Positions 208-9,069 of a DNA stretch of 10,255 nt are shown piece after piece. The notes below the pieces were generated by a model. The model ran no database searches, was not told where the DNA came from, and saw nothing but the letters and a program-made list of their open reading frames with translations. The position numbers and the translations under genes were made by a program. Where the stretch lies: NCBI GenBank assembly GCA_017545095.1, contig JAFYCU010000111.1:1-10255 (forward strand), given 5' to 3'. Within the stretch, counting starts at the first letter, position 1. Every line of letters starts with the position of its first letter. Origin of the DNA: Muribaculaceae bacterium. GTDB lineage: Bacteria; Bacteroidota; Bacteroidia; Bacteroidales; Muribaculaceae.

Positions 208-230
208 CTCCCTAAACCCCGTGGGGGTAC
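208..230. repeat. CCCTAAACCCC/GGGGG element, similar to the one at 8983-9013
   Basis: The segment CTCCCTAAACCCC followed by GTGGGGGTAC has the same plan as the element at 8983-9013: a C-run, TAAA, a second C-run, then a G-run. It can fold by pairing CCCC with GGGG. It directly abuts the first REP module at 229. Similarity is by eye and partial; the two may share only low-complexity composition. Confidence 0.4.
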
Positions 231-254
231 AGTACAGGTCATCGGATTGCCGAG

Positions 255-296
255 TCCTGTAGAACCGCACCATGGTGCGGCTTGTAACTTTTGCGT
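255..296 (+). repeat. REP copy 1 (GTAG on the plus strand)
   Basis: GTAG at 259-262 is followed after one A by the perfect 16-base palindrome CCGCACCATGGTGCGG (265-280), then CTTGTAACTTTTGCGT. Read on the other strand this is GTTACAAGCCGC, hairpin, CTACAGG, the same plan as the copies of opposite orientation. The inner stem is GCACC/GGTGC, different from every other array copy. Confidence 0.85.
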
Positions 297-303
297 CCGC
301 AAG

Positions 304-380
304 GTTGCCGCGATGCAGCACGTAGTTACAAGCCGCTGCGTGCAGCGGCTCTACAGATTGCCGGGATGCCGTTTGCGATG
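304..380 (-). repeat. REP copy 2 (GTAG on the minus strand)
   Basis: The hairpin AGCCGCTGCGTGCAGCGGCT (331-350) is self-complementary except at the two central bases and is followed directly by CTAC (351-354), that is GTAG on the minus strand. It is preceded by GTTGCCGCGATGCAG and GTTACA. The unit repeats 77 bases later as copy 3. Confidence 0.85.
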
Positions 381-452
381 GTTGCCGCGATGCAGAACAA
401 AGTTACAAGCCGCTGCGTGCAGCGGCTCTACAGGTTGCTGGATTGCCCGATG
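381..452 (-). repeat. REP copy 3 (GTAG on the minus strand)
   Basis: The hairpin at 408-427 is identical to that of copy 2, including the central GT, and CTAC follows at 428-431. The upstream block GTTGCCGCGATGCAGAAC (381-398) matches the other direct copies. The following linker is shorter than after copy 2. Confidence 0.85.
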
Positions 453-479
453 GTTGCCGCGATGCAGCACGAGGTTACA
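453..479 (-). repeat. Truncated REP left arm
   Basis: GTTGCCGCGATGCAGCACGA then GGTTACA matches the upstream block of the direct REPs, but the sequence switches at about 477-480 into the inverted REP module with no hairpin or CTAC. It marks the junction between the two modules. Confidence 0.7.
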
Positions 480-544
480 GTACAAGTCATTGGATTGCCG
501 TGTCCTGTAGAGCCGCATCATGATGCGGCTTGTAACTTTTGCGT
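477..544 (+). repeat. REP copy 4 (GTAG on the plus strand) with left flank
   Basis: GTAG (507-510) is followed directly by the perfect 20-base palindrome AGCCGCATCATGATGCGGCT (511-530) and then TGTAACTTTTGCGT. Over 68 bases it aligns with 229-296 with six differences. Two of these are paired changes in the stem (C to T and G to A), so the hairpin is kept. Confidence 0.85.
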
Positions 545-576
545 TATCAAATGTCGGTGTCTTTCACGTCGGCATA

Positions 577-651
577 GGCCGCGATGCAGAACGAAGTTAG
601 AAGCCGCTGCATGCAGCGGCTCTACAGATTGCCGGGATGCCGTTTTCGATG
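577..651 (-). repeat. REP copy 5 (GTAG on the minus strand)
   Basis: The hairpin AGCCGCTGCATGCAGCGGCT (602-621) is a perfect 20-base palindrome and CTAC follows at 622-625. It is preceded by CCGCGATGCAGAACGAAGTT and followed by the same linker as copy 2. One flank base differs (GTTAGA in place of GTTACA). Confidence 0.85.
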
Positions 652-712
652 GTTGCCGCGATGCAGAACGAAGTTACAAGCCGCTGCATGCAGCGGCTCT
701 ACAGGTTGCCGG
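652..712 (-). repeat. REP copy 6 (GTAG on the minus strand)
   Basis: The perfect palindrome at 679-698 is identical to that of copy 5 and is followed by CTAC (699-702) and AGGTTGCCGG. It starts 77 bases after copy 5. It is the REP nearest upstream of the transposase, and AT-rich unique sequence begins right after it. Confidence 0.85.
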
Positions 713-750
713 TATTGTGCATGATTTTATGTGTTTAAATGTATGATGGT

Positions 751-781
751 TTTGCAGGGTGATAATTATTATGTATTTTTG
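751..781 (+). promoter_or_regulatory. Consensus Bacteroidetes promoter for the RAYT
   Basis: TTTG (751-754) and TATTTTTG (774-781) are separated by exactly 19 bases. This matches the known Bacteroidetes primary sigma factor consensus, -33 TTTG and -7 TAnnTTTG. The transcript would start near 788, giving a leader of about a dozen bases before ATG 801. It lies between the last upstream REP and the gene, so the transposase should not depend on read-through from the left. Confidence 0.75.
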
Positions 782-800
782 TTGGTAAAAACGAATTGCT

Positions 801-1340
801 ATGAGTGAAGTTCTGTATAATGATTTGTATAGGATTGATACTGAGCGTGCTAACTGGATTGACTATAATAATGGCACATATTTCATCACGATTTGTTGCA
901 AAGGCATGGCGCACTTTTTTGGCCATATTGCAGATGGGGCGATGCATCATTCATCTATCGGCACATATGCTGTAGGTTGTATACGTGACATCCCATCGCA
1001 CTTCCCAGAATGCAAGGTGATAAATTTCGTTGTGATGCCTAATCATGTGCATATACTATTGAAGTTGGATGGAGTTGAACAGCAGTCGTCCGTGAGAAGT
1101 GGAATTGATGAATTCATGCAGGGTGTTTCGTTGCAGCGTGGGCGTTGTTCACTTATCGTAAGTCAGATGAAAGGAGCCATTACACGATATGCGCATGCCG
1201 AAGGGCTTGTTTTTGGGTGGCAGTCTCGATTTCATGATCGGTTTGTGCGTAATCATGATGAGCTGACGCGCATTTCAAATTACATCGACAATAATCCTGC
1301 CACATGGATAAATGATTGTTTCCATAATGATGACAAGTAG
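801..1340 (+). CDS. REP-associated tyrosine transposase (RAYT, Y1/HUH family)
   Basis: This 179-residue protein belongs to the Y1 transposase superfamily (IS200-like fold), single-strand DNA nucleases that join covalently to DNA through a tyrosine. The first beta strand YFITICCK is at residues 27-34. The HUH metal motif lies in VVMPNHVHILLKL with His82 and His84. The C-terminal part has the family signature FGWQSRFHDRFVRN (138-151) and ISNYIDNNP (158-166), where Tyr161 is the expected nucleophile. Length is normal for RAYTs and all key residues are present, so it is probably active. The GTAG-flanked hairpins on both sides point to a RAYT and not an IS200 transposase, whose element ends would lie close to the gene. 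The gene is visibly AT-richer than its neighbours, which suggests transfer. It has its own promoter (751-781). Confidence 0.9.
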   Translation: MSEVLYNDLYRIDTERANWIDYNNGTYFITICCKGMAHFFGHIADGAMHHSSIGTYAVGCIRDIPSHFPECKVINFVVMPNHVHILLKLDGVEQQSSVRSGIDEFMQGVSLQRGRCSLIVSQMKGAITRYAHAEGLVFGWQSRFHDRFVRNHDELTRISNYIDNNPATWINDCFHNDDK

Positions 1341-1349
1341 TGTGTTTTG

Positions 1350-1403
1350 TTTGCCGCGATGCAGAACGAAGTTACAAGCCGCTGCGTGCAGCGGCTTCTA
1401 CAG
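1350..1403 (-). repeat. REP copy 7, downstream flank of the RAYT
   Basis: TTGCCGCGATGCAGAACGAA then GTTACA precede the hairpin AGCCGCTGCGTGCAGCGGCT (1377-1396). CTAC follows at 1398-1401, with one extra T (1397) between hairpin and tetranucleotide. It begins 10 bases after the RAYT stop and has the same orientation as copy 6, so the gene is flanked by direct copies. Confidence 0.85.
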
Positions 1404-2007: not shown

Positions 2008-2064
2008 AAAAACCACGCAGATTGCGCTGCTCGCAGTGGGGTGGGTGCGCAATCTGCGTGGTTT
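2008..2064 (-). terminator. Strong intrinsic terminator after ilvE
   Basis: Read on the minus strand, AAACCACGCAGATTGCGC (2064-2047) pairs perfectly over 18 bases with its complement at 2027-2010 around a 19-base loop. The second arm runs into a U-tract (GGTTTTTC, down to 2008). It starts 28 bases after the ilvE stop. It ends just 16 bases before the GTG of the HD gene, which makes an attenuator role possible. Confidence 0.8.
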
Positions 2065-9024: not shown

Positions 9025-9069
9025 AATTACCGCAATGCGCTGCACATGAGGCAGCGCATTGCGATAATT
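9025..9069. terminator. Long hairpin between convergent genes, likely bidirectional terminator
   Basis: CGCAATGCGCTGC (9031-9043) and GCAGCGCATTGCG (9051-9063) pair perfectly over 13 bases around a 7-base loop. After one C-A mismatch, AATTA and TAATT extend the stem by five pairs. It lies between the YqaA stop (8968) and the asnS stop (9101), as expected for a shared terminator; the flanking A/T pairs serve as a modest U-tract on either strand. Confidence 0.75.

What the first reader, a model, noticed from the sequence alone, without database searches (positions are those of the whole stretch)
229..1403. Complete REP/RAYT system in a Bacteroidales-like genome
Seven GTAG-flanked hairpins surround a transposase with intact HUH (His82, His84) and Tyr161. 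The match to the REP/RAYT arrangement known from enterobacteria and pseudomonads goes down to the GTAG tetranucleotide beside the stem. The hairpin sequence here (AGCCGC...GCGGCT) is unlike the proteobacterial REPs I know, so this may be a lineage-specific and little-described REP family whose enzyme and substrates sit side by side.
Basis: partly seen in the sequence, partly recalled or inferred. Interest (0 to 1): 0.8.

Follow-up and report, generated by a model that had tools for sequence, protein, structure and literature searches.

The report
REP repeats beside their transposase gene
The window holds a small transposase gene surrounded by seven short DNA hairpins that it probably cuts and copies, an arrangement already known in many bacteria including this phylum, here with a hairpin family of its own.

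Summary
Shuffled sequence gives about none.

Less ordinary: these REPs have one GTAG foot plus a TGTAACT tail, seen in 0 of 205 hairpins in the 80 relatives' loci. Two other genomes of one genus hold 42 and 53 dispersed, mostly intergenic copies with paired stem changes and the same tail, ending at CT, the dinucleotide other TnpAREPs cut. No close RAYT was found in those genomes.

Not testable: copy number in the window's own genome (not held), and activity. The seven copies are not independent: the array grew by local duplication. The claim that the stem is unlike proteobacterial REPs fails; Stenotrophomonas has close ones.

The parts
801..1340 (+). RAYT / TnpAREP gene, 179 aa, HUH (N81-H82-V83-H84), W140-Q141, Y161
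259..289 (+). REP copy 1: GTAG, stem with one mismatch, tail TGTAACT
324..354 (-). REP copy 2: GTAG, 8-bp stem, 4-nt loop, tail TGTAACT
401..431 (-). REP copy 3, as copy 2
507..537 (+). REP copy 4, inner stem AT/AT instead of TG/CA (paired change)
595..625 (-). REP copy 5, tail TCTAACT
672..702 (-). REP copy 6
1370..1401 (-). REP copy 7, downstream of the gene, 9-bp stem (one extra base), tail TGTAACT
225..445 (.). array unit A (one + and two - REPs), duplicated in unit B
   Evidence: self-comparison
473..717 (.). array unit B (one + and two - REPs)
   Evidence: self-comparison
751..781 (+). putative promoter of the RAYT gene, TTTG-N19-TAnnTTTG (Bacteroidetes consensus recalled, not from a call)
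   Evidence: the only TTTG-N18-22-TAnnTTTG in the window on either strand

Best explanation
A REPtron: a domesticated IS200/IS605-like HUH/Tyr nuclease (RAYT, TnpAREP, TnpAY1 subclass 2.4) with its cognate REP hairpins. Proposed working: when the DNA is single-stranded (lagging strand), each REP folds into a hairpin; the protein binds it and uses the 5' GTAG as guide to select a CT dinucleotide next to the hairpin; Tyr161 attacks there, forming a 5'-phosphotyrosine link, and joining to another CT or to a neighbouring REP moves or multiplies the unit. The conserved tail TGTAACT puts a CT at a fixed place on the 3' side; a CT also stands directly before GTAG in all seven window copies. Shown here: the parts, the predicted fold, the conserved residues, the paired stem changes, the hairpins beside relatives' genes, and the dispersed copies of a sister REP with a conserved 3' end. 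Inferred from other TnpAREPs: binding, CT cleavage, strand transfer. Not shown: that this protein acts on these hairpins, or that it is active today.
For: Model: 4er8 (TnpAREP with REP hairpin) is the top match by Z, 13.1, rmsd 3.1, 128 residues; IS608 chains follow at 11.1-11.8 and ISDra2 at 10.3-10.9. NCBIfam REP_Tyr_transpos is the best family by sequence, E 3e-13, but under its cut-off (49.8 against 80 bits). Motifs NHVH, WQ, YIDNNP fit the published subclass 2.4 signature. GT[AG]G hairpins within 1 kb of 66 of 80 relatives' genes, 0.953 per kb near against 0.026 per kb far; allowing one mismatch recovers 7 of the 14 misses (73 of 80), while 6 of 127 far 2.5-kb tiles have one. Sister REP: 53 and 42 copies in two of 13 genomes of one genus, reversed-pattern control 0. 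In 93 distinct copies, picked by a rule that fixes GTAG and part of the stem but not the tail, the tail is exactly TGTAACT in 75 and has CT at its end in 85, and the sequence outside is hardly conserved; 11 of 89 are spanned by a frame open 150 nt on both sides against 685 of 944 control points. CT cleavage by E. coli and S. maltophilia TnpAREP: PMC8266576.
Against: Own genome not held, so genome-wide copies of this very REP are unknown. The window's own stem was found in no searched genome; other samples gave 0 of 20, 0 of 123, 0 of 7 and 0 of 4 genomes, and 1 of 393 with a single copy. The genomes rich in the sister REP have only distant RAYT-like genes. 7 of 80 relatives show no hairpin even with one mismatch. 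The upstream copies partly reflect tandem duplication, which needs no transposase. The protein scores just under Pfam's cut-off (22.9 against 23) and its closest relatives are about 45% identical. By Foldseek E-value ISDra2 ranks first and 4er8 tenth. Mean pLDDT 76.5, with residues 1-21, 93-103 and 107-112 under 50.
Confidence: 0.92

Rival explanations
1. An ordinary IS200/IS605 insertion sequence, the hairpins being its subterminal ends, moving as a whole.
For: Same fold and chemistry; hairpins on both sides of the gene.
Against: The IS200 model scores far below its cut-off (12.5 against 55 bits, E 0.12) while the REP-transposase model scores 3e-13; the hairpins come in seven copies of two orientations, and a sister hairpin is dispersed without a transposase gene beside the copies examined. 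Published subclass 1.1 motifs (DH[VI]H, Y[IV]ENQ) differ from those here.
Confidence: 0.03
2. The hairpins are mainly host elements (transcription terminators or mRNA 3' stabilisers between converging genes) and their nearness to the RAYT is incidental.
For: The locus sits between an apparent + strand frame ending at 112 and a - strand gene ending at 1427; copy 7 lies about 25 nt beyond the latter's stop.
Against: No T-run follows the stems; the TGTAACT tail is conserved outside the stem in the sister REP; the same class of hairpin clusters at RAYT genes in relatives. A secondary host role is not excluded.
Confidence: 0.04
3. A relic: the enzyme was cognate, but the array now grows only by recombination between repeats, and the RAYT is no longer active.
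For: Nested duplications of about 77 and 250-270 nt make up the upstream array.
Against: The gene is intact, all residues invariant in the 16-row alignment are kept by definition of that alignment, including the catalytic ones, and a promoter-like sequence lies about 20 nt before it; inner stem changes among the copies stay paired.
Confidence: 0.2

Closest known systems
TnpAY1 subclass 2.4 / group 4 RAYTs of Cyanobacteria and Bacteroidetes (PMC6006769; sections 12, 23 and 25 read, outline with abstract and found passages seen)
   Same: Motif signature NH[IFV]H, WQ, YIxNNP; phylum; REPs with GTAG beside the gene
   Different: No REP inside this gene (51 of 80 relatives have one); the REPs are single-footed with a TGTAACT tail, while 130 of 201 hairpins in the relatives' loci are double-footed
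Stenotrophomonas maltophilia REPtrons, group 3 (PMC8266576 sections 10 and 17 read; PMC3686654 one passage seen)
   Same: Perfect 8-bp palindrome directly after GTAG; several SM REPs begin GTAGAGCC, two with CATG near the centre
   Different: Different transposase subclass (2.5, motif DH[LF]H); 3-nt loop in REPSm, 4-nt here; no tail of this kind printed in the passage seen
E. coli TnpAREP (rayT) and its REPs, 4er8
   Different: 21% identity in the structural alignment; E. coli REPs have a bulged stem and its REPtron holds three REP pairs in inverted orientation

Membership tests
TnpAY1 / RAYT superfamily | HUH motif and one catalytic Tyr in the IS200-like fold | tested here: met
   (fold from a predicted model)
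TnpAY1 / RAYT superfamily | Over curated model cut-offs | tested here: not met
   NF047646 49.8 of 80 bits, PF01797 22.9 of 23 bits; these are naming thresholds, not features of the family
REPtron | GT[AG]G-tagged hairpins within 1 kb of the gene | tested here: met
   seven copies
[quoted passage not shown]
   window genome not held; met only for the sister REP in G388 and G416
REPtron | Protein cuts its cognate single-stranded REP at CT | not testable with these tools
   needs the bench
TnpAY1 subclass 2.4 | Motif string NH[IFV]H, WQ, YIxNNP | tested here: met
   window NHVH, WQ, YIDNNP; 28 of the 80 relatives fit the string exactly, so it is a loose test
TnpAY1 subclass 2.4 | Clusters with subclass 2.4 in a tree | tested here: inconclusive
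   groups with six Bacteroidales RAYTs (98% SH-aLRT), but no labelled references of other subclasses except E. coli were used
TnpAY1 subclass 2.4 | REP inserted in frame between HUH and Tyr (frequent, not obligatory) | tested here: not met
   no GTAG hairpin in 801-1340
IS200/IS605 insertion sequence | IS200 transposase model and single subterminal hairpins | tested here: not met
   12.5 of 55 bits; seven hairpins in mixed orientation

The most novel reading that the evidence does not exclude
A distinct 'tailed' REP type: single-footed, with a built-in CT cleavage site in a fixed 7-nt 3' tail, spreading as 31-nt monomers and short head-to-tail runs (13 same-strand against 2 opposite-strand pairs closer than 200 nt in the fetched stretches of the sister genomes) instead of the inverted REPIN pairs or double-foot REPs usual for this transposase class, and able to stay or spread in genomes without a close RAYT.
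Probability: 0.3. Interest if true: 0.5.

Novelty: new member of a known kind. Interest (0 to 1): 0.3.

Why it matters
How REPs spread is still poorly understood (PMC8266576, abstract). A compact locus with enzyme and substrates, plus two sister genomes with 42 and 53 copies, gives a ready test set for whether a tail next to the hairpin fixes the cleavage site. PMC3733652 leaves open whether such tails in other REP families are recognised by RAYTs (passage).

Tried and rejected
Host naming: AsnS best 82% (G022, G004; 198 genomes), BCAT best 67% (G109; 20 genomes); the two disagree and no host genus is claimed. Rfam: no match; tRNA: none. RAYT on plasmids: 3 of 72,556 records, at best 38%; phages: 1 of 50,697, 30%; viral contigs: no match to the gene's peptide patterns nor to the exact REP. 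Cognate RAYT for the sister REP: five alignment hits in G388 and three in G416 (places, some of them pieces of one gene), plus G416 C62 by Pfam, all distant and none with the sister REP in the stretch held around it; both are fragmented assemblies, so absence is not proven. Empty site: G177 and G072 have the neighbouring BCAT and HD genes side by side and no GTAG hairpin of stem 6 or more in about 3.5 kb beyond, and neither genome matched the RAYT alignment; but the next gene there does not match the window's, so this is no clean empty site. G063, G109 and G004 gave BCAT only. Terminator and plain IS readings were considered and set aside (rivals). The literature search for the REP letters returned 240 papers, 15 listed, of which one (PMC3686654) is about REPs.

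Full report
Check of the observation. Each repeat in GTAG orientation reads GTAG, an 8-bp stem (9 bp in copy 7, one mismatch in copy 1), a 4-nt loop, then TGTAACT (TCTAACT in copy 5). CT precedes GTAG in all seven. Folded as DNA, each hairpin scores z -2.5 to -4.9 against shuffles. The inner two stem pairs exist in three forms (TG/CA, AT/AT, AC/GT), all paired. Chance gives 0.005 GTAG hairpins of stem 7 or more in 1-1500 (200 shuffles). Two unrelated GTAG hairpins with weaker 6-bp stems lie elsewhere in the window.

Array. The upstream six are two diverged copies of one block (one + and two - repeats): 307-445 with 578-717 at 94%, 225-296 with 473-544 at 90%; within the first block the two - repeats are themselves an imperfect tandem (303-407 with 380-479, 86%). 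Copy 7 shares 57 nt with the stretches of copies 3 and 6 (95%), including about 22 nt beyond the tail. So the array carries a history of local duplication, and flanks shared inside the window cannot define the mobile unit.

Relatives. One genome-contig scan kept the best 80 of 156 relatives (29-44% identity in the listing). With a strict hairpin rule, 66 of 80 have at least one GT[AG]G hairpin within 1 kb of or inside the gene; 191 hits in 200 kb near against 14 in 546 kb far. Allowing one mismatch recovers 7 of the 14 misses, so 73 of 80, with 6 of 127 far tiles of 2.5 kb as control; L010, L015, L029, L030, L033, L060 and L076 still have none. 51 of 80 have a hairpin inside the gene (contig ends cut some flanks short). 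Of 201 hairpins directly after the tag in those loci, 130 are double-footed and none has TGTA after the stem; with a one-base gap allowed, 0 of 205 have GTAAC within 8 nt of the stem. P0002 and P0005 carry peptides that look like translated REPs, in line with the in-frame REP inserts reported in PMC6006769.

Sister REP. The window's REP allowing 3 mismatches was sought in 399 genomes of the family of G004 (its record, L008, is titled Prevotella sp.): 3 of 399 hit, G416 with 53 places, G388 with 42, G374 with 1; the pattern read backwards gave none in those three and one each in two others. G388, G416 and G374 fall in one genus of 13 held genomes. The change is paired: GCCGC/GCGGC here, GACGC/GCGTC there. 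Other samples: 0 of 20, 0 of 123, 0 of 7, 1 of 393 with a single copy, and 0 of 4, where the backwards control had one hit. The patterns and mismatches differed between these calls, the samples overlap and they are not all of the order. From 80 fetched stretches (eight of the 95 places not fetched) I took 93 distinct copies by a rule that fixes GTAGAG, CGC, GCG and the last T but leaves the tail free, so full conservation of those fixed letters is by construction. The free tail is conserved at 0.88-0.98 in TGTAAC and 0.92 at the final T; information is at most 0.58 bits before GTAG and drops from 0.72 bits just after the tail to about 0. The tail is exactly TGTAACT in 75 of 93; CT at its end in 85 of 93; CT before GTAG in only 9 of 93. 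So the 5' CT of the window copies is not a general feature and may be inherited through duplication. The free stem pair 10-17 occurs as CG 76, GC 10, GT 3, AT 2, TG 1 and one unpaired. Only 11 of 89 copies (4 too near a stretch end were left out) lie in a frame open for 150 nt on both sides, against 685 of 944 control points from 19 of the loci: they are largely intergenic. Pairs closer than 200 nt are 13 same-strand and 2 opposite-strand; degenerate copies outside the rule are not seen.

Against. G388 and G416 show only distant RAYT-like genes: the cognate is lost, missing from the assembly, or the units are driven by a distant one. The only RAYT there with strict GTAG hairpins beside it (G388 C158) has another stem.

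Novelty. Literature searches. In their listings I saw no paper on this REP family; one search listed 15 of 240 papers. PMC3733652 reports GTAG repeats in Proteobacteria, Cyanobacteria, Chloroflexi and the PVC group, and CGTC repeats in Bacteroidetes (passages); PMC6006769 later has subclass 2.4 with REPs in Bacteroidetes. The claim of an unfamiliar stem fails against Stenotrophomonas REPs SM5, SM9 and SM13 in PMC3686654 (passage). Verdict: a new member of a known kind, with a tail feature worth a test. CT cleavage by other TnpAREPs and the guide idea come from PMC8266576 (outline with abstract; sections 10, 11, 17, 24, 28 and 29 read); its extension to this protein is inference.

Noticed in passing
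window 751-781: TTTG-N19-TAnnTTTG, the recalled Bacteroidetes promoter form, about 20 nt before the RAYT start; the only such pair in the window on either strand.
   Followed up: partly
G388 and G416 (L132-L211): 42 and 53 copies of a tailed REP with only distant RAYT-like genes in the same assemblies.
   Followed up: partly
L129 (G374 C26): A 370-aa RAYT-like gene with five GGAGAG-GTAG hairpins (stems GCAGGAC or GCGAGAC) within about 1.7 kb, a different REP type.
   Followed up: no
P0005, P0002: Relatives with peptides such as CRDVIYDVST that look like translated double-foot REPs, in P0005 at two places.
   Followed up: no
L018, L058, L071: RAYTs of this group on contigs labelled Planktophila, Deltaproteobacteria and Chloroflexi; transfer or binning error.
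   Followed up: no
window 9025-9069: 19-nt inverted repeat (95%) between the VTT gene and AsnS, possibly a two-way terminator.
   Followed up: no
window 2010-2064: Perfect 18-nt inverted repeat with a 19-nt loop between the HD-domain and aminotransferase genes.
   Followed up: no
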